41,467 nucleotides of DNA, taken from assembly GCA_016841675.1 (NCBI GenBank), contig JAENYQ010000020.1, forward strand, positions 1-41,467, given 5' to 3'. Below are positions 16,619-36,327 of this stretch, one piece after another; the stretch's first letter is position 1, and each line of letters begins with the position of its first letter. This DNA is from Desulfotomaculum sp. GTDB taxonomy: Bacteria > Bacillota > Desulfotomaculia > Desulfotomaculales > Desulfallaceae. A model generated the notes under the pieces. The model did not search any database. It was given only the letters and a program-made list of their open reading frames with translations, and was not told where the DNA came from. The translations under genes were made by a program, and so were the position numbers.

Positions 16619-16686
16619 AGAGAGGGACAGGCCCCCTGAGGGAGTTTCTGGAAGGGCCTTTGGCCCTTTCGGAAACTCCCGGGCAA
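16619..16686. repeat. GGGACAGGCCCC repeat with hairpin
   Basis: AGAGAGGGACAGGCCCCCTG followed by the GGGAGTTTCTGGAAGGGCC / GGCCCTTTCGGAAACTCCC hairpin around TTT and a CGGGCA end. The arms differ only by G-T type changes. It directly abuts the PhzF remnant. Confidence 0.85.
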
Positions 16687-16936
16687 TGCCAACGTTGGGT
16701 CTTGTAATAACTCCCCGTTCAACACGGTAACTGCTTGGCCCCCAAGAATTACGCGGTCATTATTCACTTTAACTTTGACAAAACCGCCGCGCTCGGATGC
16801 CTGGTATGCCATAAATTCATCTTTCTTTATTAAGCTTCGCCTCCCAATATGGCCCCAAGCAGCAATGGGCAGAGCCCGTTACCGGGTCCTCATCAAGGCA
16901 TTCATTGCCATCACGGGAATGGCTTAACTTGTCCTT
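16687..16936 (-). pseudogene. PhzF-family protein, C-terminal remnant
   Basis: The minus strand reads RDGNECLDEDPVTGSAHCCL, then GPYWEAKLNKE and, after a frameshift near 16825, MAYQASERGGFVKVKVNNDR and VILGGQAVTVLNGELL. DEDPVTGSAH and QASERGG are hallmark PhzF (phenazine biosynthesis-like epimerase/isomerase) motifs. Both the N-terminal half and the last residues are missing, with hairpin repeats on both sides. Confidence 0.8.
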
Positions 16937-17024
16937 CATAAAGCGGCGAGGGTCATAAAGCGGCGAGGGTCAGACCCCTTTTAGGAGAATCTGGAAGACC
17001 GGGCAGGTCTTCCAGATTCTCCGG
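16937..17024. repeat. tandem 17-mer plus hairpin repeat
   Basis: CATAAAGCGGCGAGGGT occurs twice in tandem (16937-16953, 16954-16970), followed by GGTCAGACCCC and a hairpin with perfect 17-bp arms (16984-17000 and 17006-17022) around GGGCA. The hairpin is the sister of the one at 7664-7702. Confidence 0.85.
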
Positions 17025-18094: not shown

Positions 18095-18096
18095 TT

Positions 18097-19125: not shown

Positions 19126-19127
19126 AA

Positions 19128-19898
19128 TTAATAAGCTTTCCTCTCTTTATCATAATGATTTTTTATATAATATATTAATTCAGTTTCACAATCAAAGGAG
19201 TGGCAATTAGCATAACTTATATGATGTTTTAAATTATACTTTAAATCGTTGTCTTCAACGGTTTTCCATACATTTCCGCTAAGCCAGTTTATTCTTCTGT
19301 TTACTAATTGATATTTACCCTTAATATAATTTTTAAAAAATTGAGTGCTTTCTGAAACATATAGGTCTCCCAACAAAAATAGACTGCAGTATCTAGATGA
19401 GTCATTAATTATTTTATAATATTCTTCTATTCCTATAAAAGGTAATACCGGCTTAATAGTAACAGACCTAGGCATATTATATTTAAATAGCAGTTCAAGA
19501 GAATTTATTCTGTCCTCATAACTACTTGCATGAGGTTCAATTTCGCTTATTCTAGTAACATTAGTTATTGATATGCTTACCTTGATAAAACCTTTATTTT
19601 TACTTATCAGTTCATTATTAATTATGCTTAAATAACTGATATCGCTTTCTTTAAGGATACCTTTAGTAGAAAAACTTGTTACAATATATTTGCTTGTATT
19701 GTGATAAATATCGTTAATTATGTCTTTATAATCATCTAACATAAATTCGCCATCGCAATTGGGATACACTATATCAAAATTATTATCTAATTTTGTTACT
19801 GTAAAAGGGTTAAAATTTTTATAATTTTCCCATTTCGAAAAACAATATAAACAACCATATGGGCATATTTTATTTGAAGAAAAGAATTTTCTCTTCAT
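19128..19898 (-). CDS. radical SAM protein (SplB-like)
   Basis: 256 residues. The 4Fe-4S motif is CPYGCLYC (C12, C16, C19; CX3CX2C). DGEFMLDDYKDII, then SISITN...ISEIEPHASSYEDRINSLEL and VTIKPVLPFIG, match the core of spore-photoproduct-lyase-like radical SAM proteins (COG1533 type): EP....R, ikP.lP. An extra Cys pair (CHSFDC) near the C-terminus may bind metal. The 5'-deoxyadenosyl radical substrate is unknown; with a phosphoribosyltransferase-like and an NTP pyrophosphatase partner, a nucleotide or nucleic-acid substrate is plausible. GGAGG sits 4 bases before the ATG; first gene of the operon, behind a clear promoter. Confidence 0.8.
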   Translation of the reverse strand: MKRKFFSSNKICPYGCLYCFSKWENYKNFNPFTVTKLDNNFDIVYPNCDGEFMLDDYKDIINDIYHNTSKYIVTSFSTKGILKESDISYLSIINNELISKNKGFIKVSISITNVTRISEIEPHASSYEDRINSLELLFKYNMPRSVTIKPVLPFIGIEEYYKIINDSSRYCSLFLLGDLYVSESTQFFKNYIKGKYQLVNRRINWLSGNVWKTVEDNDLKYNLKHHISYANCHSFDCETELIYYIKNHYDKERKAY

Positions 19899-20182: not shown

Positions 20183-20896
20183 CTATCTTAGTTCCACAAC
20201 ATCCACATCCAGCCCCTGCCTATTTACTTCAAACCTATCTGATGTTAATAAATCTCCCAATGTTATATTTAAATTAAAAGGGAATAAAGACGGAGCGCTA
20301 ATTAAACTTTGATAGGCTATTGTTTCTTGAGATAGACAGCGCAAATAACATTCCAGCAGCCAGAGTTTGAGTTCATCGTTATTGATATCTATCTTATTGG
20401 CAACAATATATTCACCTTTAGTGTTGGTGTCAATAATTACTCCCCAAGAAGCTAGTGAACGAATGAGCCGTTGCACTGCCCATTTTAAGGTATTTCTGTC
20501 TCCCCAGCCTTCAATTATACGTTTATGCACCTGTAGCAAGGTTAACTCATCTTGCAGCGATAATAACTTACCTACAATAGCAGTAACATCCTTGAATAAT
20601 GGGTAAGCCAGTAGGCACATTCCCCAATGAATAGCAATTCTTTCTTCAAACGCTACTTTACTAATAAGCTGCAAGGCATTATCCCGCAGTGGAACAACTT
20701 CTTCAGGCACCGTTACCCATATTCTTAATAAAACAGTAATGTGTTTCCGCCTGGATTCGTTACCATCTATCTGTTGCGATAGTAAACTGTCCATTTGTTC
20801 TTTAATATATTTAACATCATTTTCCTCTTTTTGCAAAAAAGCTATCTTATCCATCCAATCTAGTTGAACTTTCTTATCCATGCCAATTCTTTTCAA
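20183..20896 (-). CDS. brxA: BREX type 3 protein BrxA (DUF1819-like)
   Basis: About 237 residues, all-alpha in appearance. The segment RRKHITVLLRIWVTVPEEVV and PLRDNALQLISK...ERIAIHWGMCLLAYP fits BrxA/DUF1819-type small DNA-binding proteins, and the position after pglZ is where brxA lies in type 3 BREX. In other BREX types BrxA binds DNA; its exact task is unsettled. The start is uncertain: TTG 20896 overlaps the pglZ stop (TTGA) and has GGAAG about 10 bases upstream; GTG 20917 and ATG 20881 are alternatives. Last gene of the BREX operon; no clear terminator follows. Sequence-only recognition is moderate; the context makes it likely. Confidence 0.7.
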   Translation of the reverse strand: MKRIGMDKKVQLDWMDKIAFLQKEENDVKYIKEQMDSLLSQQIDGNESRRKHITVLLRIWVTVPEEVVPLRDNALQLISKVAFEERIAIHWGMCLLAYPLFKDVTAIVGKLLSLQDELTLLQVHKRIIEGWGDRNTLKWAVQRLIRSLASWGVIIDTNTKGEYIVANKIDINNDELKLWLLECYLRCLSQETIAYQSLISAPSLFPFNLNITLGDLLTSDRFEVNRQGLDVDVVELR

Positions 20897-22836
20897 CGAT
20901 GTTTTTCTTCCTTCCACAGTTTGATAAAGGGCACAACAATCTCTTCCATACTAATGCCACCGTGGCTTACAACACTTTTGCCCTCGGCGATATAAGCAGT
21001 TTCATTCTCCGCTAGCAATATGTGAAGGTCATCGGGCAAACCATATTTATTAGGCCATTCAATAGATTTTGTTTCTTCCATTGCTTCACGCATAAACTCC
21101 GATGCCTGGTATATTCTAAATCGTTCACCCTTGCTAGTAACTAACGCCCCTTGGTTAAGCTTACCTTGGCCAACCGCCTCAATGTTACCATGATCCGAAG
21201 TTAAATAAACCCTAAATTTATTTTCAAATAGCTTTTCTAATAAAGCTTGTAGGTAACCCCCCTGCATCCAAAGCTCTATATCCTGGTGCATGCCTTTAGT
21301 TCCCAGCTGTTGGCCGTGAACCATCTTATCAATTTTATCAACAACCAGACCCAAGATTTTTGTTTTAGGCTCGGATAACAAGGTATCTAATTCCGGACTA
21401 TCTCCATCTCCCAAACCTTTAACCAGTTTTATATTAAAAGCTTTAAAGCCCTCATTCTCCCAAAACCGCTTCCAAAGGTGTTCCTCTTTGCTTGTGTTAA
21501 ATAAAGAATCTTTAAAATACCGTGGCGGCTCACCGGCAAAAATCGCCTGGCGCGATACCGAGGTCATAGTAGGCACCCAGGCAAAGGCAGAACCTTCTTC
21601 AAACTTAACACCGTATGACTTTAGCAGGTATTTTTTAACCAGCACCCATTGATCCCAGGCCATACCATCAAGAACTACTAAGGCCAGCCTCTGCCAGTCA
21701 GCCTTTCTCCCCTGGTAGCCTAGGAATTTTGGAATATGATGCACCATAACTGGGTTTTTAATATATGGCAAATTGCTTAACGTGCCGTATTTAGCCAACA
21801 ACCATTCCTTAAACAGCTTGCTAAGTTCCTGATATATGTTATTAAACTGAGCCTTCATGTCCTGAGACAAATTGGCAATTTCATATAATGTTATTTTAGC
21901 TTCCGCTAAAATAGGAGCGACCTTCAGCCAGTGCTGATAAGAGAGGTTCTCCTGGTACAATAATTTATCTAACTTTTTAATGAGTAGTTTTAACTTAGTT
22001 TCATCATGGTAAGTAGCCTGATAGCCGGTAATTCCTGCTTTAGCCCATTCGGGTAACTTATCCACGCCCTGATTAACAGCAACCGGTGTTAATATGCCTT
22101 CATTAAACAGGTTATCTATATAAACCCGGATATCGTCATGTTCAAAAGGTACCAGCGCCTGGCTAGCACCTTTTATTTTGCCCTGTATAAAAAGGGACCA
22201 CTGTTCCTGTAAAAAGCTCCAGAAATCCTCCCGGTTGGCTAGTAAAACTGACCCATTTATGCCTGTATAAAATTCCTTGCCCTGCAATTTTTCATCTATG
22301 AATGCTACTAAGTCGGCTGGTAATTGCACCTTACGATAATGTAAAGAAAGCAAAACCCTGGTAAACTGTTCGAGATTCTTTATTAAGCTTGGCACCAATT
22401 CATAAATATGCTGCAGCACAAACTCTCTGGTACCCTGATCCCCCAGCGTTACCCCAGGACATTCAGAATAAGCCTGGTACAAAGCACCTATAAATTCAGT
22501 ATCTAATTGCTTTAGCACTGGGTAACTAAACCTGGGGAAAAACTCCGCCAAACTCAAGCTAACGGCTACCCCAGCCTGCTGCACATCATAAGGCAAGCTG
22601 TTTAAGTTATACTCCCGCACTTGCACAATTAATTTGCGCTCAGCTTGGTCACGAAACTCTGCTTCATATACATACCGAAAAGCCACCGGGTCGTTATGCT
22701 CCACAATTTCAAAGTCTTTACCGGTCAAATAACCCAGGATACTTTCTTCCTGTAGAATCCCATCCGGGTCAGCCACAAGAATGATTCTGTGCATATCTAA
22801 GTTGAACTTTTCCAATACCCTCTGGTACCAAAGCAT
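20893..22836 (-). CDS. pglZ: BREX PglZ, alkaline-phosphatase-fold protein
   Basis: About 647 residues. The C-terminal half has the PglZ/alkaline phosphatase core: LVVLDGMAWDQW (about 392), AWVPTMTSVSRQAIFAGEPP, YLTSDHGNIEAVGQG (about 547) and SVVSHGGISMEEIVVPFIK (about 627), supplying the Asp, Thr and His metal ligands of the fold. The N-terminal half (helical) is typical of BREX PglZ. PglZ is one of the two universal BREX proteins and works with PglX in the modification/exclusion complex. The ATG at 22836 has GGAGGG 8 bases upstream and follows the brxHII stop by one base; a TTG at 22854 is unlikely. All metal residues appear present. Confidence 0.93.
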   Translation of the reverse strand: MLWYQRVLEKFNLDMHRIILVADPDGILQEESILGYLTGKDFEIVEHNDPVAFRYVYEAEFRDQAERKLIVQVREYNLNSLPYDVQQAGVAVSLSLAEFFPRFSYPVLKQLDTEFIGALYQAYSECPGVTLGDQGTREFVLQHIYELVPSLIKNLEQFTRVLLSLHYRKVQLPADLVAFIDEKLQGKEFYTGINGSVLLANREDFWSFLQEQWSLFIQGKIKGASQALVPFEHDDIRVYIDNLFNEGILTPVAVNQGVDKLPEWAKAGITGYQATYHDETKLKLLIKKLDKLLYQENLSYQHWLKVAPILAEAKITLYEIANLSQDMKAQFNNIYQELSKLFKEWLLAKYGTLSNLPYIKNPVMVHHIPKFLGYQGRKADWQRLALVVLDGMAWDQWVLVKKYLLKSYGVKFEEGSAFAWVPTMTSVSRQAIFAGEPPRYFKDSLFNTSKEEHLWKRFWENEGFKAFNIKLVKGLGDGDSPELDTLLSEPKTKILGLVVDKIDKMVHGQQLGTKGMHQDIELWMQGGYLQALLEKLFENKFRVYLTSDHGNIEAVGQGKLNQGALVTSKGERFRIYQASEFMREAMEETKSIEWPNKYGLPDDLHILLAENETAYIAEGKSVVSHGGISMEEIVVPFIKLWKEEKHR

Positions 22837-22837
22837 A

Positions 22838-25615
22838 TTAACAGCCCTCCACAAAAACTAAACATACCGGAGTCAATTCAGGGATAAAATTCTCCTTGTT
22901 CGCCAAACGCTCAATCCAAAGCTGTTCTTCTCGGTCCAACTGTTTAAGCCGGTGCTCCCTTACCCCTTTTAGTCCTAAACGGTTAATTGCCTCCCGTCGC
23001 AGCCGAAAGGCCAGGGCCGTCTTTTCTTTCTCCTGCATAAGCCGTTGCCGGTGCAGCTGTTCAATTTCCTTATATAAACTATAGCCATGTTGTTGTATTT
23101 TTTCTTCCAACAATTCCAAAATAACATCACTTTCTTTATAACCGGTGGAATACACCTTTTGGTTTTTATCCATAAGCCTGTCCCATAAATGATTGGCAGT
23201 TGGCAAATAAAACTTACCCGCTTCGGTCATAAAAACCGGGAAAATCCTTTCTAACCTGTGACCCGCATAGCTTAGACCTATTGCCCAAAGAGCCCAATAG
23301 CCCTGTACGCCTTCCGGCAAGTCCTTAAGCTGCAATACCGGCACCGGTTCACCGGGAACAAAGATCTGCCGGGCCATTAATATCTTTTGAATTCTTTCAT
23401 CCTGCAACGTTAGTGTTTTATCACTGACCCAATCAGATCTTTGCCCCTGAAAGGTTATATCTTCGGCAACGGTTCCATCAGGCCATACTAAATCGTAACC
23501 TGTTAATTTTGGCGTTACCGTTCCCCCGTTGGCTTGTAAATAGTTTACAGTCATGGTTTCTAGCCAACATCCTATGGGCAGGCCACTTACTTGTTCCACC
23601 AAACTTATATCCAATTCCTTTTCATCTTTAATAATTTCTCGCACCTGATACAAGTTCTCCGCTTTTTCGCGCACTTCCTGAGCTAAACTGTCAAGCTCAC
23701 GTTCTATATTGCCCGGAGCCAATATAGAAGCAACATAGGCCTTGGTGAAATCAACCTCTGCCTGGCCAGAATCCAATACATCCCCGGATTTGTCCACCCC
23801 AAACTCTTTCCAGATAATTTTTAACTTTTCCTCTAAAACTTCCTGTACCCTATATTCCACGGTATTAGACAAGATAAAGTTATATACTTTAACTACCTGC
23901 TTTTGACCAATCCGGTCAACTCTACCAATGCGCTGCTCCAGCCGCATGGGGTTCCACGGCAAATCATAATTAACAACTACATGACTGAATTGCAGATTTA
24001 AACCTTCACCACCGGCCTCAGTGGAAATAAGTAACTGGCAGTGGCCGGCAAAATCCTGCTGCGCGGTCTGCCGCTCATCCAGCGACATGGCGCCATTGAG
24101 TATGGCTACCTTAAAACCCTTTTCACTAAAAAAATCTGCTAACAGCTTCTGTGTAGCCACAAATTCAGTAAAAATTAAAACTTTAACTTGTTCGTCATTC
24201 TCTTGTAATTGTACCTGGTGGATGATATCCAACAATTTTTCTGCTTTAGCGTCTACATAGCTTAATTCACACTGCCGGGCTAGGGCCAGTAAGCTTTCTA
24301 CTTCAGCCCGTTCGTTTTTTAAGCCTTCCAGGCTCTTGCCAAAGAGTTCTTCTACCATTTCCTGGCTGTCTAATTCCCAAAAATCTACGTCTGGGTCAAC
24401 GTAATTAATGGGAACTTGCTTCAAGACCTCTAGTCGTTTTTCCAACGCTTCCCGAATTGCCCTGGTGCTGCTAGTCACCATACGTTGCATCAGCACCATT
24501 AAAAAACCAATATAATTTTTCTTTTCCAGTAAAGCCTGGTTGTAACCCAGCCTTACGTAATCAGTAACTGCGTGGTAAAGTTTTTCCTGCTCGGCATGGC
24601 GGGCTTCCCATTCCACCGGTAGCATTTTGGTTATGCGGGGCTGAAAAATTTTACAGCCGTGCGCATCCAGCGCTTCCCTTTTCTCCGTACGAATTACATA
24701 TGGGGCTACCTGTTCCTTAACAATGGCATTGGCATTGGGAAAAGCCTCACTGTCAATTAACTTCATTAACCTGTAAAAGCCATCTGTTTTTCCCTGGTGG
24801 GGAGTGGCAGTAAGTAGTAATAGGTACGGAGTTGACTCTGATAACGCCTTACCCAACTTAAAACGGGCCACCACCTCAGTGCTGCCGCCCATTCTGTGTG
24901 CTTCATCCACCACCACCAAGTCCCAGCCGGCGTCTATTACATTATAAAACCGATCCTGATTGTAACGGGCCAACTGCTCCTTGCTCCAACCCTTGCGCGC
25001 TTCAACGGGCTTAATGGCGTCCATCGGGCACACCACCTGGTTGTACTGTCGCCAGGGATTCGTTTGCCCGGGCATAAGGCTTAAGGCTGCTAATTCCCCA
25101 GGGATCAGCAAATGAAAGTTTTCGTTAAAGTGATTTTGCATTTCCTGAACCCACTGGGCCACCAAGCCCTTAGGGGTCACAATCAATATTCTTTTTACCA
25201 AGCCCCGCAATTTTAGCTCCCGAATAATCAGCCCTGCTTCAATGGTTTTCCCTAAACCAACTTCATCGGCCAGCAAATAGCGCACCCGGTTCCCTGAAAT
25301 AGCTCTATTTAAAGCATATAACTGGTGAGGCAAAGGTATAACACTGCCTTCCGCCGGTGCCAGCAGGTTGTCCTTGGCTAAAGCATCCTTAATCCGGGCC
25401 GCGGCAATTTTGTATGAAAGTTCGGGCAAAGAAAATTGCTGCCGTTGCTGTAGTGCAGTTAAAGCTTCTTGCTTTACCCATTGAACACCGTTAGCCCGGG
25501 GCAACCAGACCATATAATTTATGTAACCCCATATTTCTTTGTACTCAATAATGCGGGCAGGAGCTTGGTGCATAACGCTCCAAACCCACTGCCCGGTCAC
25601 AAATCTTTTCGCCAT
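22838..25615 (-). CDS. brxHII: BREX type 3 helicase BrxHII (SNF2-like)
   Basis: 925 residues, superfamily 2 helicase of SNF2/HepA type: motif I LLADEVGLGKTIEAG (about 118), motif II VVVDEAHRMGG (about 237), motif III LLLTATPHQG, motif V/VI STEAGGEGLNLQ and EQRIGRVDRIGQ (about 563). The C-terminal 300 residues, rich in helices and heptad-like charged stretches, are specific to this group. Type 3 BREX loci carry this helicase between pglXI and pglZ. The ATG comes one base after the pglXI stop, so the genes are coupled. All ATPase motifs are intact. Likely acts on DNA in the exclusion complex or in limiting phage DNA replication. Confidence 0.92.
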   Translation of the reverse strand: MAKRFVTGQWVWSVMHQAPARIIEYKEIWGYINYMVWLPRANGVQWVKQEALTALQQRQQFSLPELSYKIAAARIKDALAKDNLLAPAEGSVIPLPHQLYALNRAISGNRVRYLLADEVGLGKTIEAGLIIRELKLRGLVKRILIVTPKGLVAQWVQEMQNHFNENFHLLIPGELAALSLMPGQTNPWRQYNQVVCPMDAIKPVEARKGWSKEQLARYNQDRFYNVIDAGWDLVVVDEAHRMGGSTEVVARFKLGKALSESTPYLLLLTATPHQGKTDGFYRLMKLIDSEAFPNANAIVKEQVAPYVIRTEKREALDAHGCKIFQPRITKMLPVEWEARHAEQEKLYHAVTDYVRLGYNQALLEKKNYIGFLMVLMQRMVTSSTRAIREALEKRLEVLKQVPINYVDPDVDFWELDSQEMVEELFGKSLEGLKNERAEVESLLALARQCELSYVDAKAEKLLDIIHQVQLQENDEQVKVLIFTEFVATQKLLADFFSEKGFKVAILNGAMSLDERQTAQQDFAGHCQLLISTEAGGEGLNLQFSHVVVNYDLPWNPMRLEQRIGRVDRIGQKQVVKVYNFILSNTVEYRVQEVLEEKLKIIWKEFGVDKSGDVLDSGQAEVDFTKAYVASILAPGNIERELDSLAQEVREKAENLYQVREIIKDEKELDISLVEQVSGLPIGCWLETMTVNYLQANGGTVTPKLTGYDLVWPDGTVAEDITFQGQRSDWVSDKTLTLQDERIQKILMARQIFVPGEPVPVLQLKDLPEGVQGYWALWAIGLSYAGHRLERIFPVFMTEAGKFYLPTANHLWDRLMDKNQKVYSTGYKESDVILELLEEKIQQHGYSLYKEIEQLHRQRLMQEKEKTALAFRLRREAINRLGLKGVREHRLKQLDREEQLWIERLANKENFIPELTPVCLVFVEGC

Positions 25616-25616
25616 T

Positions 25617-28199
25617 TTAACCTTCCGTTCTGGTTAGGGCATTGTTATAGTACATTAACAAAGATACGTCATCCTGGATAATTGATTCAGGGATTCTCTG
25701 TGCTACCTTCACAATAGTATGGTACTCTTTATTTTTCCAGCAAAACTTAAACCCAGCCCGCACCGATTCTGACCGAAATAGTTTCAGTTTGCCTTTACCT
25801 TCTTTATATAGTTCAAACTCCCTAAGTAAGGCCTTTTCACGCAGTTTTTCTAGGTCGGTTTGTTTGTTGATGTCAGGTACGTACCAGCTACCGTCCTCGT
25901 CCTGTAAAAAATTTTGGTCTAATATTTCGGATAGCTCAAGCTGCTTCTCCCATCGCACATACTTAGCTTCCTTTAAGAATTGCGGGGTTAGTTCAGCAAG
26001 TGTTTGTAGTTTATTTTCTAATTTGGACCGCATCCACTGTATGGCGGATCTTTCGTCCTGGATAAACAAAGAAAGTTGACCAACACCTTGGGCTAACGCC
26101 CTTTTTTGCTCATACTCCGGTACCTGTTGCGGCAGGAAGTACATACCATCTCGCTCGGGAAACCGCTGGTGCAGTCCCATGTAAAATTCGGCAGCCCCCA
26201 TTGGTATTGTGTAGCCGTTTTGCAGGTGGAAGGCCACCATGCGGTCATAAAGCATATAGTTTTGCCTTTCGGCAAGTACCTCTATTAAGTTATCACTAGT
26301 CACCACCACGGGTAATTGTTCCAAGTGTTGTTTAACGAATTCCCATACTCCTTCCTCTGTACCGGCTTTGGCAATGAATTTTACAATAAAATTAGCTTTT
26401 GGTTTATAAGCTGAAACTACCAAATCTTCCTTCATAGCAGATGTGGTTGTTATTTGCTTAAAACTACCTTGCTTTTTATTGAGAACTCGGACATCAGCTA
26501 CGATAAAGCCAGCTTTAAGTAGAGCATCCTGTATAGCATTCCAAATAGAATTTTTAGAGTTATGGAAAACCATTGTCAACCAACGCCCGGGTTTCAAAAT
26601 ACGATACATTTCTTTGAAACAATTATCCATAATTAACCGATATTCCAAAAGTCCTTTACCTTGCGATTTGTTTATAATTGCTTCCTGATTATTATTAGTG
26701 ATAACTTTTAACCATGCTTCCCAAAAAAAGTTTAATTCAGAATACATTAAGTTATCACCAAATGGTGGGTCAGTAAAAACATAATCACAAGAATTATCGT
26801 TTAAGAACTTAAAGCTATTCATGCTCTGATTTGCAATTACTACATCCTTTTTGGTGAACTGTCTCATTTTATTGAGAATACCTTTTAAGTTCCTTATTTT
26901 ATTACCTATTATATAGCCTAGAGAAACATCAACAACCTGGGAACCTATATATAATGTACCGCTTAAATATTGATTAACTTGTGAGTAGTGAGTAGGCACA
27001 TATCTTGCAATTTTACTCATGCCCAAAATCGATTGTTCGAAGGTATAAAGAATATATCTTTTTAAGTCAATATCAACTTTTTCTATTAAACTAAAAACTT
27101 TTGCTAAACTAAATAAAGCTCTTTTTGTATAAAAATGATGTACATGAGTTATACCAGCATGTATTCCTGATCTCCATGTATCACCCCACCTTTGACCTTT
27201 AAACATAAATCTTTCAGTAGGGTACCAATAAGGAATATCCATGCTCTCAATTTTATCAATAAGGTCATGGTCAAATCCTTCCGGATCTTTTTCAAACCTT
27301 TTGTTACCCAGCGAATAATTAATCAGCACCGGTACCTGCTTTGCATGGCGTATAGTTTCATTAATATCCTTGTCAAACTTGGTTACCCAGGCACGCTCCA
27401 TATTACGTTTGTTTAGCATGGCTTTACAATGGGGGCATAAAAAATCTTTATTAACTTTACCTTTTTCTTTTTCTACTGCCGCATTATAAAATATAACTTC
27501 TTCACTACACTGCGGACATACGAATACATCAGACCAAACGGTGTAATTAATCCTCCCCAACACAGGATTACCATCCGCATCCTTCAGTATTTTTCCGTTA
27601 AAAGTATGTTGCGTTTGGTACATCCACCCGTATTCCTTTTCTACTTCTAATAGAATACGGTTGGCTTCCCTCTCAAATTCCTCTACGTCCACTGGGTTAT
27701 TGTAATTATAGGCAATAAAGGTGGCTACTGGGGATAAATCACACAAAATAGCTTTTCTGGTTCCCCATTTAACCGAGCCCATTTCCTGCACCAGATGCGT
27801 CTTAAAGGCCGGGTCAGGATTACCGCACATTTGGGCCGCCACCCCGGTCATCCCTGTGCCGCAAAACCCATCAAATACAATATCTCCCGGTTCAGTATAA
27901 TGCAAGATATACCGCATGATGGCCTTATGCGGAACCTTAGTATGGTAGGAGTGTGCGTTATAAATAGGATCATTCTTACCCTCCGTCACATCAGCCGCAA
28001 AGGGTTCTCGGTGATAGTCATCGGTGGCGTCATAGGGCTTGCCGTGTTCCTTAATAAAATCTTGAATAAACGGGTTGGGGCATGCGGTGTAATAAGGCGG
28101 AGCCGACAGCGCAATGATGTCTTCATCCCGCCCTATGGGAAAACCTTCGATATGCCTTACACTGTCTAGTAATTCTTTAGTTAACTTTTTCTTTTCCAT
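25617..28199 (-). CDS. pglX: BREX type 3 DNA methyltransferase PglXI
   Basis: About 860 residues, a COG1743-like adenine-specific methylase with zinc ribbon. An early APPYYTACPNPF stretch (about 35-45), SAM motif I DIVFDGFCGTGMTGVAA (about 106-122), two CxxC pairs (FVCPQCSEE and FLCPHCKA), and catalytic motif IV TDPPFGDN (about 478) are all visible. In BREX this enzyme methylates one strand of a short asymmetric host motif to mark self. The start is ATG 28199 (GGAG 11 bases upstream); GTG 28211 is possible. The gap to the brxC stop is 16 bases. A middle section (about 26760-27300) is AT-richer than its surroundings and may have been exchanged by recombination, as expected for specificity. Confidence 0.9.
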   Translation of the reverse strand: MEKKKLTKELLDSVRHIEGFPIGRDEDIIALSAPPYYTACPNPFIQDFIKEHGKPYDATDDYHREPFAADVTEGKNDPIYNAHSYHTKVPHKAIMRYILHYTEPGDIVFDGFCGTGMTGVAAQMCGNPDPAFKTHLVQEMGSVKWGTRKAILCDLSPVATFIAYNYNNPVDVEEFEREANRILLEVEKEYGWMYQTQHTFNGKILKDADGNPVLGRINYTVWSDVFVCPQCSEEVIFYNAAVEKEKGKVNKDFLCPHCKAMLNKRNMERAWVTKFDKDINETIRHAKQVPVLINYSLGNKRFEKDPEGFDHDLIDKIESMDIPYWYPTERFMFKGQRWGDTWRSGIHAGITHVHHFYTKRALFSLAKVFSLIEKVDIDLKRYILYTFEQSILGMSKIARYVPTHYSQVNQYLSGTLYIGSQVVDVSLGYIIGNKIRNLKGILNKMRQFTKKDVVIANQSMNSFKFLNDNSCDYVFTDPPFGDNLMYSELNFFWEAWLKVITNNNQEAIINKSQGKGLLEYRLIMDNCFKEMYRILKPGRWLTMVFHNSKNSIWNAIQDALLKAGFIVADVRVLNKKQGSFKQITTTSAMKEDLVVSAYKPKANFIVKFIAKAGTEEGVWEFVKQHLEQLPVVVTSDNLIEVLAERQNYMLYDRMVAFHLQNGYTIPMGAAEFYMGLHQRFPERDGMYFLPQQVPEYEQKRALAQGVGQLSLFIQDERSAIQWMRSKLENKLQTLAELTPQFLKEAKYVRWEKQLELSEILDQNFLQDEDGSWYVPDINKQTDLEKLREKALLREFELYKEGKGKLKLFRSESVRAGFKFCWKNKEYHTIVKVAQRIPESIIQDDVSLLMYYNNALTRTEG

Positions 28200-28215
28200 G
28201 TCATTGCGCACTCCG

Positions 28216-31200
28216 TTATTCTAAAATTATCCTTACTTTGGCAGTTTCTTTACCGGTCAAATTATTATCCAAGTATTTGATAAACCGCCCCTTTAACTCC
28301 TCAATGGTGCAGGGGCTACCGCCGGTTAGTAGGGCGGTTTTTATTTCGTCCAGAGTCATGGTTACCTTAACCAGGCCGCGCAGCACCTCCTGGACGGCTT
28401 TAATAAATTCAATGTCTAAGTTAACAGGCAAAGCTCTGGTGCTTAAAAACTCCTCTACCCTACTTCTGGCGCTTTCATTGGCAATCAGCGTTATATTGCT
28501 GCGCACAATGGGGTCTTCCAGGTTTTCCAGCAGCGTGTTGTTCCATTCCGTGATCATTGTCTCCAGGGCGTCTTCCAGCTGCTCCAACCGGCCGTGCACG
28601 GGCTTGGCACTATCTTCCCGAGCGGGGTTAAAGGAACAATGCGGGCATATAGGAACGGTTTGTAGGTCTTCTTTGACTAGGCTGAAACAGGGCTTCAACT
28701 TGCCCAGTTCATCGTTCCATTCTTGCAATTGCCCCTTGGGCATAAGTTCGATTTGCTTTAATTTGTTTAATTTTTTTAAGTCCTCGTGCTGTAATAGTTT
28801 TTTCTTTTTTGTATCGTCATGGACATCCAGCCGGGACTTCTTATGCAATTCCAAATACTTATTAATATAGTTTTCCTTTATACTCTTTAGGCGGGTGATT
28901 ATTTCTTTCTTGATAGTATTATCTACTTTGCTACCAGTAACCAAGTCGGCCAGTTGCCGGCGCTGGTTATGCAGTTCCTGCACCCACTGGTTATCACCAG
29001 GCAGTGCCATTTCCGCCTGCGATACATAAGCGGCCAGGTTGTCGGTTTCTCTCTTCAAAGCCAGTAATCCAACTAGCCTAATCATGATTTGTTTGGCAAC
29101 TGCTTGTTCTTGGATATCCTTGATCGAATAGCGAAAATTTTTTAATTTGGCCGGTGTTTTATAAACCTGCAGAGTTTCCCAAAAGCTTTTGAAACTATCT
29201 AATTTTTTTCTGGCCTGTTCCTTTTCCGCTTCGGTTAAAAAGTTAATGCCAAAGCTTTGAATACCGCTGGTAACCTGAGGTTGTAACGTGGCCACTTTTT
29301 GTACCAGGGTAGTAACTTCCTTTTGCATATTTTGTACGGCCTCTTCCCTGGTGGCCGGGTTGACAATTTGCCCCGGTGGCAGCCCTAAAAATTCAAAGAG
29401 CACCTTTAATATTGGGAGCGGCAAATCCTTGGGCGGCTCGATATGTTTAAAATCAATAATATCTTTCAGTGGTTTTTTGGCCAAGTCCTCAAGGTTGGAG
29501 GCATCAAACTTGCCGCCTGGTAAGGCCAAGGTTATGGCCCCGTCATAAACCAGGGACACCAGTAGCACAGCCACCCACTCGGGCTCTAGTCGGTAAGCTA
29601 TGGCATAGTCAATGGTGTCAACAGGTTGAATCAACTCGTTGCGGTTTACCACCTGGCCGGCACCTTTTTTATTTAGCCGGTCTGCAATAAACTTGGTGTA
29701 ACGTGAATTTAATGGCTTTAAGCTGTTGCCTTCCAAGAGTTCCAGGGCGTCCAGCATTTTGGCCCCAATATCGGTTTTTATGTTGGTGGCTATCCAGCGT
29801 ATGGCATCCTGGGCATACTGGTCCCGGTTTTTTGAGGTAACTTGCACGGTAAAGGTCGGGTAATCCGGCGTCTGTTCCTGAAAATAGGTAGATAGCAGGT
29901 TTGCTGCAGCAGTATTGACCAGATCTCTGGTATCCTTACTGGAGCCGGCACCTTTAAGCCAGTTAACAAACTTATGGGTAACACCTTTATAAGTAATTTC
30001 AAAAGCCGAGGTCAGGTTATTTTTAATCCAATTGGCTACATCTTTGCGGTATTGGGCTGCTTTATCGGTATAATTTTTTTTGCTTTCACCCTGGGAGATA
30101 CCAGCCATTTCCACCGCTCCGGCGTAGAACTTAAGTGCAGTTATAAATTTGTCGTCTTTCTTTATTAAATTTAAGAAGACTTCATCTTGTTTTTTCTCAT
30201 CTTCAAATTCATGCTTGCCAAACGGCTTTGTAAAATAGATATAGAAGTCCCTGGGAGGCTGCGCAGTGGATCGCTCATTGGGCGCGCCGAAAAACAACCA
30301 GCCGAGGCGGGAGGTTTTCTTTTCCTTCCACTCCAGTTCATATTCCCAAACCCGGTGGCCTGTAACCATAGATTCACCCAATTCTACAATCTGGGTGAGG
30401 GCATTAAAGTAATATCTATTTAGGGTGTCTTCTGAAAGCGTGTCTGCTTTCTTTTCGATTTCAGAATCATAGTCAATATCCTTTTTGATATCCAGGTAAT
30501 ACTGCGCATTTTCGCTGTTTTGGGAAATAAACTGGCCGCTAACGGTCTTGCGGATTTCCCTTAAAACGGTTTCCAGCGTGGTAAGTAAAAAGTCGGCGTC
30601 TTCCTCAGGCATAGGCAAGTGTAGGCAAAGACCGTCCCTTAGATTAGCGGCAGTAAGGCCAACTGGTAAATTTATATCCCCGGTGGTCAAACGATGAACG
30701 CTCAAAGCGTTAATAATGCGCAAGGCAGTAGGTTTATATAATGGTTGCGTAAAGGAGGTATTAATTATACTCTCCAGGCGCTGACTTTTATCCACAATGG
30801 TTCGTACATCCGGAATGCTTCTTAACGAAGGGTTATCTAAAATAAATTCCCAGTAAGAATCATAGGAAAAAAGGCCCGGCTCGTCCTCCGGCACGGCTTG
30901 CTGGAGCAGTTTGCCGATGGTTTGGCTTAAGGTTTTTAATACTTCCCTTTTTTCGGCCACATAAATGCTTTCAAATGTTTTTAGGTATTCGGGATGCACC
31001 GGAAACAAGGTGACAAACTCCTCGGCTCTTTCAGCCATGTTTTCGTAAAGTTGATAAAATTTCTCCAGGTGGGAGCGAATTAAAGCCTTTTGACGGTCAT
31101 CCTTTTTTAACAGCCGGTTGGCTACCACAAAGGCTACGTCTTCCCGGGCGATGCGCAGCTGTTCAAAACGGGCCTTGACCCGATTTAAAGTTGCCGCGAC

Positions 31201-31887
31201 AAATTGAAAACTGTTGTTATCAAACAAGGATTCCTGAACACCGGCAATGAATCTAAACCTGGTGTTTTTGCAAACCTCACCTATTTCACGCAAAAAGTTA
31301 AGGTCTAAAACCACTTCCTGTTCGTTTCTGGTGCGCAGGTAGTCCAGCAATTCATCCACCACCACCAGAAATCCCTGGTTTGGGTACAGTTCTTCAAATT
31401 GGGCCATCATTTCTATTAAGTTGTCCTTGGTATTGGGTACCTGGTCCATCGGCGGAAAAACATATTCTACATCAATAGTTTCTAGAAAGTTAGTCATGCC
31501 CTGACAAATAATTTCCCGCAGCGGCATTTTTGAGGCGCCGATTTCTGTGCGAAATACCTTAAACTTCCCAGCCACATTGGCAGCATGTTCTTTTACCGAG
31601 TTATTTTGGATTAAGTCCGGAGTGTCACCATGCTCACAAATAGTGGAGATTACAGACATTAAGTGCGATTTACCCGTTCCATAATTTCCCACCACAAGCA
31701 AGGCTTTGTTATCTTTAGGTTCGTGAAACTGTAAATGCGGCAGCATAACATCTAGTAGTTTTTCGGCCATGCGGTCGGATATAACAAACGTTTTAACCAG
31801 CCTTTGGGCTTCGGCATAATCATTTGCTTCTACTACCTGTACTACTGTTTCAATGGGATCAAATTGTACTAAATCACCATATTTCAA
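28216..31887 (-). CDS. brxC: BREX ATPase BrxC (DUF6079 type)
   Basis: 1223 residues. Walker A GNYGTGKSH (67-75) in an ORC/STAND-like context, Walker B GFLVVVDELLDYL (about 172-184), followed by a sensor region ...RFIAGVQESLFDN. A late zinc-binding pair (PICPHCSFNP) lies about residue 1080, between long coiled-coil-like helices. BrxC (PglY) is the large ATPase of BREX and is needed for both methylation and phage exclusion. This long DUF6079-like form goes with type 3 loci. The start is TTG 31887, with AAGGAA just upstream and GGGGG further up, 13 bases beyond the brxF stop. No disruption. Confidence 0.92.
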   Translation of the reverse strand: MKYGDLVQFDPIETVVQVVEANDYAEAQRLVKTFVISDRMAEKLLDVMLPHLQFHEPKDNKALLVVGNYGTGKSHLMSVISTICEHGDTPDLIQNNSVKEHAANVAGKFKVFRTEIGASKMPLREIICQGMTNFLETIDVEYVFPPMDQVPNTKDNLIEMMAQFEELYPNQGFLVVVDELLDYLRTRNEQEVVLDLNFLREIGEVCKNTRFRFIAGVQESLFDNNSFQFVAATLNRVKARFEQLRIAREDVAFVVANRLLKKDDRQKALIRSHLEKFYQLYENMAERAEEFVTLFPVHPEYLKTFESIYVAEKREVLKTLSQTIGKLLQQAVPEDEPGLFSYDSYWEFILDNPSLRSIPDVRTIVDKSQRLESIINTSFTQPLYKPTALRIINALSVHRLTTGDINLPVGLTAANLRDGLCLHLPMPEEDADFLLTTLETVLREIRKTVSGQFISQNSENAQYYLDIKKDIDYDSEIEKKADTLSEDTLNRYYFNALTQIVELGESMVTGHRVWEYELEWKEKKTSRLGWLFFGAPNERSTAQPPRDFYIYFTKPFGKHEFEDEKKQDEVFLNLIKKDDKFITALKFYAGAVEMAGISQGESKKNYTDKAAQYRKDVANWIKNNLTSAFEITYKGVTHKFVNWLKGAGSSKDTRDLVNTAAANLLSTYFQEQTPDYPTFTVQVTSKNRDQYAQDAIRWIATNIKTDIGAKMLDALELLEGNSLKPLNSRYTKFIADRLNKKGAGQVVNRNELIQPVDTIDYAIAYRLEPEWVAVLLVSLVYDGAITLALPGGKFDASNLEDLAKKPLKDIIDFKHIEPPKDLPLPILKVLFEFLGLPPGQIVNPATREEAVQNMQKEVTTLVQKVATLQPQVTSGIQSFGINFLTEAEKEQARKKLDSFKSFWETLQVYKTPAKLKNFRYSIKDIQEQAVAKQIMIRLVGLLALKRETDNLAAYVSQAEMALPGDNQWVQELHNQRRQLADLVTGSKVDNTIKKEIITRLKSIKENYINKYLELHKKSRLDVHDDTKKKKLLQHEDLKKLNKLKQIELMPKGQLQEWNDELGKLKPCFSLVKEDLQTVPICPHCSFNPAREDSAKPVHGRLEQLEDALETMITEWNNTLLENLEDPIVRSNITLIANESARSRVEEFLSTRALPVNLDIEFIKAVQEVLRGLVKVTMTLDEIKTALLTGGSPCTIEELKGRFIKYLDNNLTGKETAKVRIILE

Positions 31888-31900
31888 TTCCTTATCCCCC

Positions 31901-32365
31901 TTAAACCTGTAAAATGGTGCAATCCTGTTCGGTTAAACCCTGGTAGCTCAGAAACTCAGGGTGCCCCTGGCTGGCAAAAGTAAGCCTGCCGCCATCAAAT
32001 TCCCCGGTCCAGCCCGCAACTATGGTTTTATTACGGCTGATGGTTTGCAACGCTTTAAGTGGATCAACCTGTAGTTCGGGTAAAAATAGCAATTCTATTT
32101 GGTCAAGAAAAACAACGTCCTCATTATGTGTCCTAATAATACCGTTCAATGAAGTTAGAATCTGAGCAGCCCTTTTGCGAGCGGGAATGTCTACAAGTAT
32201 ACCTGCTAAGGCTAAGTTAAGATTTATATAGGGGTAGTTTAGTGAAGTGCTTGTCTGTTGCAGGAATTTTGTTTTGGTCTCAGCAAAGATGCTTAAAATA
32301 AGAACAAGTCTATAATATTTACTTTTGGCTGCTTCGATTTTTTGGGTTTGAACTTGAAGTTGCAA
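31901..32365 (-). CDS. brxF: BREX type 3 protein BrxF with degenerate P-loop
   Basis: About 154 residues. KYYRLVLILS...KTKFLQQ, LNYPYINLNLALAGILVDIP, EDVVFLDQIELLFLPELQVD and RLTFASQGHPEFLSYQGL match the short P-loop protein BrxF, the marker gene of type 3 BREX. Here the Walker A loop reads SIFAETKT instead of a GxxxxGKT: both glycines are lost, only KT remains. The Walker B-like VVFLDQIELL is intact. The TTG start at 32365 has AGGGGTG 8 bases upstream and gives the usual length; an upstream TTG at 32407 has no site. First gene of the BREX operon. Confidence 0.85.
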   Translation of the reverse strand: MQLQVQTQKIEAAKSKYYRLVLILSIFAETKTKFLQQTSTSLNYPYINLNLALAGILVDIPARKRAAQILTSLNGIIRTHNEDVVFLDQIELLFLPELQVDPLKALQTISRNKTIVAGWTGEFDGGRLTFASQGHPEFLSYQGLTEQDCTILQV

Positions 32366-32469
32366 AGGTTTTTCACCCCTATAGTATATTGTTCCACAAT
32401 TTAACAATAATAAAAAGTTTTATTACTAAATAATTAAATATTTAATTCGACAATTTTTGCAACGATTGC

Positions 32470-32502
32470 AAAAAACGGGGCTGCTATTGATAGCTACCCC
32501 GT
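32470..32502 (-). terminator. Rho-independent terminator of the helicase-nuclease gene
   Basis: On the minus strand ACGGGG..GCTAT..ATAGC..CCCCGT forms a long stem with a small internal loop, followed by six T. It lies 120 bases beyond the helicase stop and 105 bases before brxF, so brxF-brxA is probably transcribed from its own promoter. TTAATTCGACAATT occurs twice around it (about 32442 and 32562). Confidence 0.8.
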
Positions 32503-32622
32503 CAAATTATTTTTAAACTACTTGATAAGCTCATACCAAATCCTCCAGAAGTTATTGGTTAATTCGACAATTGCTACATTTTACCTTCAGTTAATATTTA
32601 CCACACCGTGTATATTTTGATA

Positions 32623-35600
32623 TTAATTATCCCTAAATATAGAATTTATGAGTTGTTCAATTTCCTTTGAACTTATGCCACCTTTATTAGAATCTTTAGT
32701 AATTATAATGGTTCTATTATCTCCTCCACCTTTTTCAACGGGTAAAATTTTCTGGTCTTTATACCATTCCAACTTTTTTTCCCACCGCTTGGCATAACCT
32801 TTATCATGGAGCATACCCAGGTGCTCCCAGTAATAAGTAATCCCTGATTCGTCATCTTCAATGGTAAAGTCGGGGTATTTTACAGTACCGTCATTCCCTA
32901 TTAATTTTTTCTCATAAGAGTATTCAATACCCTTAAAGGACAGCATATCGGCAATGATAACTTCCGACTTGGAGCGCACCGGCTCGCCGCGCCGAGTTCG
33001 GTGTATTAGCTTTTCTTCAAGGAACCGGTCATCAATATTAACCATTGATGGTGCATCAAACAAGTTGGTCAGCCTACTGGCAGTTTCGGAATAATAAGCG
33101 GTAGAATATTTTAATAACTCTGAACGGTTACCTTGATGAAGAATCACAATACGATCCTTTTGCCTAGTCAAGGCGGTGTACAACAGTTCTCTGGTTAGTA
33201 ACCGACAAGGGTTTGGTAAAATAAGCAGCACCAAACCAAATTCACTACCCTGAGCTTTATGAACTGTAATAGCATAAGCCAATTCTAATATTGGACTTGC
33301 TTCTTCCTTAAAATCACTGGCTTTGTAATCATAGGTAAAGCCTGGTTGGGATGAAAATTCTATCTTTAATAGCCAGGGTAAGCCTTTAAAATTAGCTTTC
33401 GGCCCTTTAAATTGCCCGACGGCTATCCCTATTTCCCCGTTGGCAACATATTTTAGTGCTTTTTCTTTTGGATATACACTATACCTAGCATGGTTTTTAA
33501 TGTTAATGACCTTATCACCATAAACGATACCTTCAGGTCCCATTAGTTTTGGAATTTTTCTATATCGTGTTTGGGCAAATGAAATAGTTTTATGCCTAAA
33601 TGTTTTCTGTGTTAACCTATTTAGTTCTGCTACACCCTGCAATCCACCACGAACAGGTGAGAGTATTTGCCAGGCCTCAACCTCTTTTGCACTACCGGGG
33701 TTAAAGTAAACATTATCTTTCCACTGTTTGCCACCCAGTGATTGTTCAAACCCTTGGTAATCTTCCTTCCCTTGTAATTTAAGTTCATTCGCCAGTACTT
33801 CTATAATTTTTACTTTCAGCTCTGCGCTGGTATCCCAAGATACAAACCTTATATGATCAGTGGATTTGTCTTGAAAAATATGATTTAATACCTCGTCCTC
33901 ACCAGGACCGAGATTTCTACCACTGAACCAGTCAGCTAATTGCAGGTCCTCGCGATCCCCCTTTTGTCTGCAGCGAACAGTTAATTCCGTGTAGCCCGGG
34001 CCCACTTTAGGGAATATACCATCAATATTAGGTGGGGTTAGCCTATTAGCTATGTCAACAAATGGGCGACCCGGCCCTATGGGAGGAAGCTGTCTCGGAT
34101 CTCCGACCAGTATTAATCTATGTACGCCCTTCAACGCGTCCAGCAGGGCTCCCAATTGTTCCTCCGTTAACATAGAAGCTTCATCAACAATGACGGTTTT
34201 TGCCACATCAACCTTATCTCTGGTGGAAACCCGGTAAACCCCGGTAGTTTCGTCATAACGGTCATATTTACGAAGGAATTGAGCGATGGTGTATGAAGTT
34301 ATTTCTGTAGATTGTTGCATTTTTATGCGAGCCTTACCGGTGGGAGCTAGTAATAAAACTTCACCCTCCGCTATTTTGGGGTAATTGCAAATTATTGATA
34401 GCAGGGTGGTTTTGCCTGTTCCGGCAGGACCGATGAGCACCGATATGCGTGATTCAGCTAATTCATTAAGAGCAGCTGTTTTTTCATTCCTGGCACGTTC
34501 TTCATCCTCGTCTAATTTATTGTCTTTATCGTCAAGTTTTTTATCTAATAGCGTTCGCCAGTCAGCATTAATTAAGTGACGTTTCCCACGCAGGCGCTTC
34601 TCAACCTGGTTACGTATAATTTCACCCATGTGGCTTAATTCAAATAATTGATACGCCCTCGTTTTATCTTGCATGTTTTTTAGGGTAATTACTTTACCAA
34701 AGTGCGGCTCCACGATATTTAATAAATCACGATCCAATGGACAGGCCGGTTCCATTGGTAAATCCCTTACACACTGGATTACATGAGATTGCGGGAGCAA
34801 AGTATGTCCCTTGGCTGCAGCTTCCTCCAATGTATTAACAATAATGGCCCGTACACGGCGCGGGTCTGTTGCATCATCTAATATTGATGGTGCAGGAAGA
34901 GGGTGCGCTTCCCGCACAGCTTTAACTGGAAACATACCTCTGTCAACGGTCATAACGCTAACGGGTTCCAGAGAATAACGGTCTTTTTCAAAAATGAGGT
35001 ATGGATTTTCTAGTAACTGTCGGTCAGAACAATTTATACCGGCTTTTGTTCTTTCTTCATCAACATAAAAGCGGGTGGCCTGTTCTATGACAACTTCAAA
35101 ACGACTTATCAATTTTAATAATGCCCGGCGTTCTTCGGGTAACTTGGCCCATTTTGCACATATGGTTTTTCCTAACTTGCTGGCGAGTTCAGCTGGTAGT
35201 TGTCTAGGGTTTTTAAAGACGTTGTCCACAAGAGGCCAAGGGTCTTCATTTACCCCTAAGTGGGAAGACAAATCGTAAGCGAGGAAGTTACCATGTTCTA
35301 CACCGAAGGCACATAAAGCAGCTCCTAGTCCCGGGTATGGACCCCGTAGCTTCCATAGTTCCGATAAACGCTGGTCGATCCATTTTAATTGTTTATCCCA
35401 ATTTCCTTCAATTACTCCCGATAATTTTTTCAGGGCGTCTGCACAGGAAAGCAATGCCCCAATGGCACCGTCATGGGTAACATGTTCTGTAGCATAAGAA
35501 AATTCTATTCTTCTATCCTCGGGTGCATAAGCCACAAAATCGGCAGGATTTATTGAGGGGTTTTTGGCAGCATAATCAAGTAATTCCTGATAGGGTAAAA

Positions 35601-36327
35601 TAAAGCCGTCATTAAAATCGGGTCGTACGGAATGCTGAATAGCCACATCCCAAATAAAACAACGTAAACCGGCAGCGCTATTGCGTTTATATTCAACCGG
35701 TTCTCCAACATGTAAAGCACGACCTACGCCTATTAAAACACGTCTTCCGTCTTCATTTAACGGTGTCTGTTTGGCATAGAAAAAAATTAATGTCTTTTCC
35801 GGCTGAACAGCACTGAAGAATGTTTCTAATAAAATTTTCTGGTTGTTATAGCCTTGCACCCATCCCGTTTGGAATGGTAGTTCCGGCTCATCTTCTTCTC
35901 TGCAGGGAAGTTCCAGTTGTTCGGCAATATCCCAGGCATTCTTTTTGAGCATCCAGCGAAATGGAACACCAGCTGAAGAATAAATTGGCATTCTAAACCC
36001 TGTAGGGAGTAAATGCTCGTGGGTACTAACACCTCTCTCGAGATAAGGATGCTGTACAACGCGGGTAATTTCAAAAGGGGACATAAAAAAGCCTCGCTCA
36101 GCCACGCAGGCGGGCCATTTTTTTTCTGGTATATCGGATAGCATTTGACCGGCTACATTATCTTCACTAACGTCATCCCTGGATTCTCGTATGCGGTCAA
36201 GGGCTAGGCAGGCAGTATTATTTGAAGGGTTTTTGCAAACGCCACCCGTCCAACCATTATCGTGCCAAGGTACACGAACAGAAATATGTCGAAGTGGCAA
36301 CTTCCTGTAACCATCTATGGAAGACAT
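32623..36327 (-). CDS. RecD-like helicase with C-terminal nuclease-like domain
   Basis: 1234 residues. A long N-terminal region (1-600) of unknown fold precedes an SF1 RecD/UvrD-type helicase core: SVLIGPAGTGKTTLL (about 634), VIVDEASMLTEEQL (about 719), LVGDPRQLPPIGPG, YAITVHKAQGSEF (about 1024) and LLYTALTRQKDRIVI. From about residue 1105, RSKSEVIIADML...YSYEKKL...KYPDFTIED...YYWEHLGM...KRWEKKLEWY resembles a PD-(D/E)xK nuclease (E, D, E and a late K). It probably unwinds and cuts DNA. It is not a standard BREX gene but precedes brxF on the same strand, behind a terminator. ATG 36327 has GAGG 7 bases upstream. Confidence 0.82.
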   Translation of the reverse strand: MSSIDGYRKLPLRHISVRVPWHDNGWTGGVCKNPSNNTACLALDRIRESRDDVSEDNVAGQMLSDIPEKKWPACVAERGFFMSPFEITRVVQHPYLERGVSTHEHLLPTGFRMPIYSSAGVPFRWMLKKNAWDIAEQLELPCREEDEPELPFQTGWVQGYNNQKILLETFFSAVQPEKTLIFFYAKQTPLNEDGRRVLIGVGRALHVGEPVEYKRNSAAGLRCFIWDVAIQHSVRPDFNDGFILPYQELLDYAAKNPSINPADFVAYAPEDRRIEFSYATEHVTHDGAIGALLSCADALKKLSGVIEGNWDKQLKWIDQRLSELWKLRGPYPGLGAALCAFGVEHGNFLAYDLSSHLGVNEDPWPLVDNVFKNPRQLPAELASKLGKTICAKWAKLPEERRALLKLISRFEVVIEQATRFYVDEERTKAGINCSDRQLLENPYLIFEKDRYSLEPVSVMTVDRGMFPVKAVREAHPLPAPSILDDATDPRRVRAIIVNTLEEAAAKGHTLLPQSHVIQCVRDLPMEPACPLDRDLLNIVEPHFGKVITLKNMQDKTRAYQLFELSHMGEIIRNQVEKRLRGKRHLINADWRTLLDKKLDDKDNKLDEDEERARNEKTAALNELAESRISVLIGPAGTGKTTLLSIICNYPKIAEGEVLLLAPTGKARIKMQQSTEITSYTIAQFLRKYDRYDETTGVYRVSTRDKVDVAKTVIVDEASMLTEEQLGALLDALKGVHRLILVGDPRQLPPIGPGRPFVDIANRLTPPNIDGIFPKVGPGYTELTVRCRQKGDREDLQLADWFSGRNLGPGEDEVLNHIFQDKSTDHIRFVSWDTSAELKVKIIEVLANELKLQGKEDYQGFEQSLGGKQWKDNVYFNPGSAKEVEAWQILSPVRGGLQGVAELNRLTQKTFRHKTISFAQTRYRKIPKLMGPEGIVYGDKVINIKNHARYSVYPKEKALKYVANGEIGIAVGQFKGPKANFKGLPWLLKIEFSSQPGFTYDYKASDFKEEASPILELAYAITVHKAQGSEFGLVLLILPNPCRLLTRELLYTALTRQKDRIVILHQGNRSELLKYSTAYYSETASRLTNLFDAPSMVNIDDRFLEEKLIHRTRRGEPVRSKSEVIIADMLSFKGIEYSYEKKLIGNDGTVKYPDFTIEDDESGITYYWEHLGMLHDKGYAKRWEKKLEWYKDQKILPVEKGGGDNRTIIITKDSNKGGISSKEIEQLINSIFRDN

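What the first reader, a model, noticed from the sequence alone, without database searches (positions are those of the whole stretch)
20183..32365. Complete type 3 BREX locus
Seen: six genes in the order brxF, brxC, pglXI, brxHII, pglZ, brxA, with gaps of 1-16 bases or overlaps and all main catalytic motifs (except the BrxF P-loop) intact. This is the canonical type 3 BREX order. The host should carry PglX-dependent methylation at one motif.
Basis: partly seen in the sequence, partly recalled or inferred. Interest (0 to 1): 0.7.

Follow-up and report, generated by a model that had tools for sequence, protein, structure and literature searches.

The report
Ordinary complete type 3 BREX locus
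This is an intact, textbook set of six anti-phage (BREX type 3) genes in an anaerobic Peptococcaceae-like bacterium. The newer details are a methyltransferase with an exchangeable target-choosing segment, a BrxF without its usual nucleotide-binding loop, and a neighbouring helicase-nuclease gene of a kind that has joined such systems several times.

Summary
Confirmed. Minus-strand genes brxF, brxC, pglXI, brxHII, pglZ and brxA (window 32365 to 20183) are intact, tightly packed and in the canonical type 3 BREX order. All six match type 3 profiles with E between 1e-41 and 0. The same order recurs in relatives from many phyla. The closest relative, a same-family Peptococcaceae MAG, shares five genes under purifying selection (dN/dS 0.07-0.15), but its brxHII is broken.

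Refinements:
(1) BrxF has no Walker A here, although 85 of 108 relatives have one. It has changed about 13 times on a BrxC tree, and this BrxF is still constrained (dN/dS 0.08), so its loss is not a defect.
(2) PglXI residues ~337-478 form an exchangeable specificity module: 28 of 31 pairs with at least 80% identical cores have under 50% identical modules.
(3) Directly upstream lies PDC-S68, a RecD-like helicase with a predicted PD-(D/E)XK nuclease end. Its family sits beside or inside type 3 BREX in three separate lineages, and also in other defence loci. A terminator separates it from brxF here.

The predicted methylation is plausible but untested. The locus is a new member of a known kind.

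The parts
31901..32365 (-). brxF, STAND/AAA-like small protein; Walker A degenerate (SIFAETKTK), Walker B Asp retained
   Evidence: PADLOC BrxF 1.1e-43, NF033453 2.6e-41; comparison of P-loops; start supported by ribosome-binding site and by G401
28216..31887 (-). brxC (DUF6079 ATPase), Walker A GNYGTGKS, Walker B VVVDE, C-terminal CPHC
   Evidence: invariant motifs in alignment of 13 homologues
25617..28211 (-). pglXI (BrxXI) DNA methyltransferase; SAM motif FDGFCGTG at residue 113, invariant four-Cys zinc site C232/C235/C259/C262, catalytic DPPF at residue 481
   Evidence: PADLOC PglXI E=0; PF01555
26777..27203 (-). hypervariable exchangeable segment of PglXI (residues about 337-478), inferred target-recognition module
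   Evidence: 26% identity to nearest relative against 85-86% on both sides; 28 of 31 pairs with cores at least 80% identical have under 50% here; single copy in the genome
22838..25615 (-). brxHII, Swi2/Snf2-type helicase, motifs intact
   Evidence: PADLOC 1315 bits; Pfam SNF2-rel_dom and Helicase_C
20893..22854 (-). pglZ, type 3 phosphatase/nuclease-fold protein, active-site motifs intact
   Evidence: NF033449 722 bits, cut-off 250; alignment to PorX structures
20183..20917 (-). brxA, DNA-binding component
   Evidence: PADLOC BrxA 7e-84
32623..36327 (-). PDC-S68 family gene beside the operon: RecD-like SF1 helicase (Walker A GPAGTGKT at residue 633) with a predicted C-terminal PD-(D/E)XK nuclease domain (RSKSE 1118, PDFT 1152, WEHLG 1167)
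   Evidence: PADLOC PDC-S68 E=0; AAA_30 and UvrD_C_2; predicted fold pLDDT 88, best matches Bax1, Vsr, R2 endonuclease
32470..32505 (-). intrinsic terminator between PDC-S68 and brxF
   Evidence: CGGGGTAGCTATCAATAGCAGCCCCG followed by TTTTTT; fold z -5.4; conserved in the nearest relative

Best explanation
This is a complete, probably functional type 3 BREX phage-exclusion operon. PglXI methylates (probably N6-adenine) a short sequence chosen mainly by its exchangeable module at residues ~337-478, marking host DNA as self. BrxC, BrxF and BrxA would recognise or scaffold on unmarked incoming DNA. BrxHII would unwind or translocate on it, and PglZ would be the metal-dependent nuclease effector. 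Shown here: the gene set, its integrity and order, the motifs, the variable module and the purifying selection. Inferred from relatives and the literature: methylation, self/non-self discrimination and nuclease action. BrxF here works without a P-loop, as a structural or sensing subunit. The neighbouring PDC-S68 helicase-nuclease is probably a separately transcribed accessory defence gene.
For: All six proteins match type 3 profiles. The order is the same in relatives of many phyla. In the same-family relative G401, brxA, pglZ, pglXI, brxC and brxF are kept at dN/dS 0.07-0.15. Active-site motifs are intact in BrxC, PglXI, BrxHII and PglZ. The zinc cysteines are invariant in 73 PglXI sequences, and the variable module lies between them and DPPF. 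BrxF without a P-loop recurs, with about 13 changes on the BrxC tree. Type 3 component roles follow PMC12839542.
Against: No methylation, expression or phage data are available. G401 carries a broken brxHII beside otherwise conserved genes, so the conserved genes may serve some purpose without full restriction. Only 2 of 16 family genomes hold this locus, so it is patchy and could be decaying in some lineages. The specificity role of the module is inferred from its variability, not measured.
Confidence: 0.93

Rival explanations
1. The locus is a type 3 BREX by descent but inactive in restriction because BrxF has lost its nucleotide-binding loop.
For: The Walker A position reads SIFAETKTK and most homologues (85 of 108) keep the loop.
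Against: BrxF is under strong purifying selection (dN/dS 0.08); the same state is shared with G401 and recurs in about a dozen other lineages with otherwise intact operons. BrxB of type 1 BREX also lacks Walker motifs (PMC12839542).
Confidence: 0.08
2. The functional unit is seven genes: PDC-S68 plus BREX-3, with the helicase-nuclease acting as a backup effector.
For: PDC-S68 homologues sit inside the type 3 BREX operon between brxC and pglXI in three genomes, beside pglXI in a fourth, and next to brxF here with a remnant in G401; three separate associations on the PDC-S68 tree.
Against: A terminator conserved with G401 separates it from brxF; G401 has lost most of it; 10 other PDC-S68 genes from unbiased samples are not next to BREX-3, and plasmid copies stand alone or with other systems.
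Confidence: 0.25
3. It is one of the DUF499-centred BREX-related (BR) systems, not BREX type 3.
For: PMC12839542 reports homology between type 3 core proteins and BR systems.
Against: BrxC matches DUF6079 and the BrxC profile over its full length, PglZ passes the BREX-3-specific model, and BrxF and BrxA are present.
Confidence: 0.01

Closest known systems
Type 3 BREX (brxF-brxC-pglXI-brxHII-pglZ-brxA), as described in PMC12839542 and PMC10799925
   Same: All six genes, order, strand, domain content, and the four-Cys zinc site within the PglXI insert.
   Different: BrxF has no P-loop; PDC-S68 adjacent upstream; otherwise nothing unusual.
Type 3 BREX of an uncultured Peptococcaceae MAG (CAJYBN010000003.1; G401, L068, L105)
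   Same: 73-89% protein identity across the locus, same BrxF state, same upstream leader and terminator, remnant of PDC-S68.
   Different: brxHII broken by a deletion and missing N-terminal part; PglXI specificity module only 26-27% identical; lacks the three-gene low-GC cassette next to brxA.
PDC-S68 phage defence candidate (PADLOC-DB)
   Same: Full-length match, RecD-like motor and C-terminal nuclease-like domain.
   Different: Here adjacent to BREX-3; relatives occur in type I restriction-modification loci and other settings.

Membership tests
Type 3 BREX | brxC/pglY ATPase (DUF6079 type) | tested here: met
   PF19557 1477 bits, PADLOC BrxC 1723 bits
Type 3 BREX | pglXI-type methyltransferase with internal insert, zinc cysteines and DPPF | tested here: met
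   PADLOC PglXI E=0; motif order and invariant cysteines
Type 3 BREX | brxHII helicase | tested here: met
   PADLOC BrxHI|BrxHII model PDLC02500 1315 bits over 918 residues
Type 3 BREX | pglZ of the type 3 kind | tested here: met
   NF033449 BREX_PglZ_3 722 bits, cut-off 250
Type 3 BREX | brxA and brxF present | tested here: met
   BrxA 7e-84, BrxF 1e-43 and NF033453 over cut-off
Type 3 BREX | operon order brxF-brxC-pglXI-brxHII-pglZ-brxA | tested here: met
Type 3 BREX | methylation-dependent phage exclusion | not testable with these tools
   needs long-read modification calling and phage plating
PDC-S68 | full-length match to the PADLOC PDC-S68 models | tested here: met
   PDLC05065 1660 bits over residues 11-1231
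PDC-S68 | anti-phage activity | not testable with these tools
   a candidate family; no experiment found in the paper library

The most novel reading that the evidence does not exclude
PDC-S68 RecD-like helicase-nucleases are a recurrently recruited backup effector of type 3 BREX (at least three separate recruitments), working together with an operon whose specificity is re-targeted by swapping a ~140-residue module of PglXI.
Probability: 0.3. Interest if true: 0.45.

Novelty: new member of a known kind. Interest (0 to 1): 0.3.

Why it matters
By itself it adds one more clean type 3 BREX locus in an anaerobic Firmicute lineage. The comparison yields three testable points about the little-studied type 3 branch. 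(a) Target choice probably resides in PglXI residues ~337-478, so module exchange would be the way to test it. (b) BrxF nucleotide binding is dispensable in some lineages yet kept in most, which qualifies both the 'P-loop protein' and the 'inactive STAND' labels. (c) A helicase-nuclease family has repeatedly joined these operons.

Tried and rejected
A second or silent copy of the PglXI specificity module in the genome (phase variation by recombination): none found. The WYL-domain regulator in the window as a dedicated BREX regulator (BrxR-like): no WYL hit beside BREX in G401, and only one among the roughly 105 BREX-3 loci, so not supported. PDC-S68 as a fixed seventh BREX gene: rejected, since 10 of 10 non-seed family members in phylum samples are elsewhere. 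Viral contigs: no relative of PDC-S68. Middle gene of the low-GC cassette in phages and plasmids: no match. Leader-peptide attenuation in front of brxF: a tiny ORF with a ribosome-binding site ends at the terminator base here, but of 16 terminator-bearing upstream regions only this one has it, so it is left as a remark. PglXI structure prediction was only moderate (pLDDT 74, pTM 0.44) and was not used for claims.

Full report
Observation. The window is a complete contig (C59, 41,467 bases) of a 3.84 Mb genome. On the minus strand, six ORFs run from 32365 down to 20183, spaced 13, 4 and 1 bases and then by short gaps or overlaps. Profile searches name every one: BrxF (PADLOC 1.1e-43; NCBIfam NF033453 140.8 bits, cut-off 50), BrxC (PADLOC 1723 bits; Pfam DUF6079 over the full length), PglXI (1292 bits), BrxHII (1315 bits), PglZ (the BREX-3 model NF033449 at 722 bits, cut-off 250) and BrxA (279 bits).

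Integrity. Motifs read from the translations: BrxC Walker A GNYGTGKS and Walker B VVVDE, invariant in 13 homologues; PglXI SAM motif FDGFCGTG (residue 113) and catalytic DPPF (481); BrxHII DEVGLGKT, VVDEAH, LTATP and QRIGRVDRIGQ. PglZ aligns to the PorX phosphodiesterase structures through VVLDGMAWDQW, VPTMTSVSRQAIFAG, LTSDHGN and SHGGIS. No gene is interrupted.

Relatives. In a sample of 398 genomes of the phylum, 61 have a BrxF over the cut-off, but only 2 of 16 genomes of the family hold this locus, so its distribution is patchy. The other is G401, an uncultured Peptococcaceae MAG (title). Its proteins are 73-89% identical. dN/dS between the two is 0.07-0.15 for brxA, pglZ, pglXI, brxC and brxF, so these five genes are under purifying selection. 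In G401 brxHII is broken by an 874-base deletion and lacks its N-terminal part. A scan of one genome per species with a BrxC alignment gave 80 loci from many phyla. Across all loci the order BrxF-BrxC-PglX-(BrxH)-PglZ-BrxA dominates.

PglXI specificity module. Between this protein and G401's, residues 25-336 are 86% and 481-864 are 85% identical, but residues 340-476 only 26%. Among 73 homologues, 31 distinct pairs have cores at least 80% identical; 28 of these have under 50% identity in this segment. G401's segment is 69% identical to that of L082, a locus from another family, and some pairs with 52-58% identical cores have 56-62% identical segments. The four cysteines at 232, 235, 259 and 262 are invariant in all 73. 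PMC12839542 described a ~250-residue insert with a four-Cys zinc finger and proposed it as the target-recognition domain from structure models. The present data place the exchangeable part in its C-terminal ~140 residues, after the zinc site and directly before DPPF. The specificity role is inference. In type 1 BREX, PglX is the proven specificity factor, but its recognition domain is C-terminal (PMC11341690). There is no second copy of the segment in the genome.

BrxF. The Walker A position reads SIFAETKTK here and SLFAETKTT in G401, while 85 of 108 homologues keep a [GA]xxxxGK[ST] loop. Those 85 also keep a Walker B Asp, followed by Asn in 82. On a BrxC tree of 96 loci, presence or absence of the loop needs 13 changes (FastTree, so approximate). 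PMC12839542 calls BrxF an inactive STAND protein and NCBIfam calls it P-loop-containing. Both states exist, and the loop has been lost repeatedly. Because this BrxF is constrained (dN/dS 0.08), the loss is not a sign of decay.

PDC-S68. The gene directly upstream (32623-36327) matches PADLOC's candidate defence family PDC-S68 over its full length, with a RecD-like motor. Its last 138 residues are predicted with pLDDT 88. Their best structural matches are Bax1, Vsr and R2 endonucleases, all PD-(D/E)XK-like, at modest E-values (best 2e-3), so the nuclease assignment is likely but not certain. Homologues lie inside the BREX-3 operon between brxC and pglXI in three genomes (L140, L170, L183), and next to pglXI in a fourth (L196). 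G401 keeps only a C-terminal remnant. On a 13-sequence tree, association with BREX-3 changes state three times. Elsewhere the family sits within a type I restriction-modification locus (L200), after one (L088), in a DruE/DrmMI-like locus (L198), beside a type IIG/Gabija-like locus (L202), or apart from any recognised system. About 1% of genomes sampled in three phyla have it, and none of the 10 non-seed copies in those samples lies next to BREX-3. It is therefore a recurrent accessory, not a core gene. Here an intrinsic terminator, conserved in G401, separates it from brxF, which argues for separate transcription.

Mechanism. From the type 3 literature (PMC12839542) and the anatomy: PglXI marks self DNA; BrxC, BrxF and BrxA form the recognition or scaffold part; BrxHII is the motor that replaces BrxL; PglZ is the nuclease. 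All of this is inferred by homology. No type 3 methylation measurement was found in the library.

Verdict. An ordinary, intact type 3 BREX locus; a new member of a known kind. The added value lies in the mapped exchangeable module, the recurrent BrxF P-loop loss and the PDC-S68 association.

Noticed in passing
32442-32620, minus strand: Between PDC-S68 and brxF the 12-mer TTGTCGAATTAA occurs twice, the only two copies in the whole genome, both conserved in G401: a possible operator for the locus.
   Followed up: partly
32502-32534, minus strand: A tiny ORF (MSLSSSLKII) with a GGAGG site ends exactly at the base of the terminator in front of brxF; in G401 it is MGLPNCLKILFQ with an in-frame 6-base difference and the stop at the same place. 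Possible leader-peptide attenuator, but the G401 ribosome-binding site is weak.
   Followed up: partly
17135-19898, minus strand: Low-GC (28-31%) three-gene cassette just after brxA: a CxxxCxxC protein that looks like radical SAM, an unknown protein, and a MazG-like pyrophosphohydrolase whose C-terminal half resembles a C39-type peptidase. Absent in G401, where the HD/OB protein follows brxA directly; no PADLOC match.
   Followed up: partly
9105-11805 and 13650-16350: Two 99.7% identical 2.7 kb copies of a WYL-regulator / 86-aa / HD-OB-domain gene block, with a 96% identical 0.3 kb extension: a recent local duplication.
   Followed up: no
4066-5839, minus strand: OLD-family ATPase (PADLOC HEC-01A 1e-100) paired with a DUF4276 protein: another likely defence pair in the same island.
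   Followed up: no
7500-7700, 12000-12110, 13290-13440, 16570-17020: Dispersed short repeats with GGGACAGGCCCC cores and long inverted arms, probably REP-like or miniature mobile elements.
   Followed up: no
L068 (G401) 5643-7260: The nearest relative's brxHII carries an internal deletion and missing N-terminus while the other five BREX genes remain intact and constrained.
   Followed up: partly
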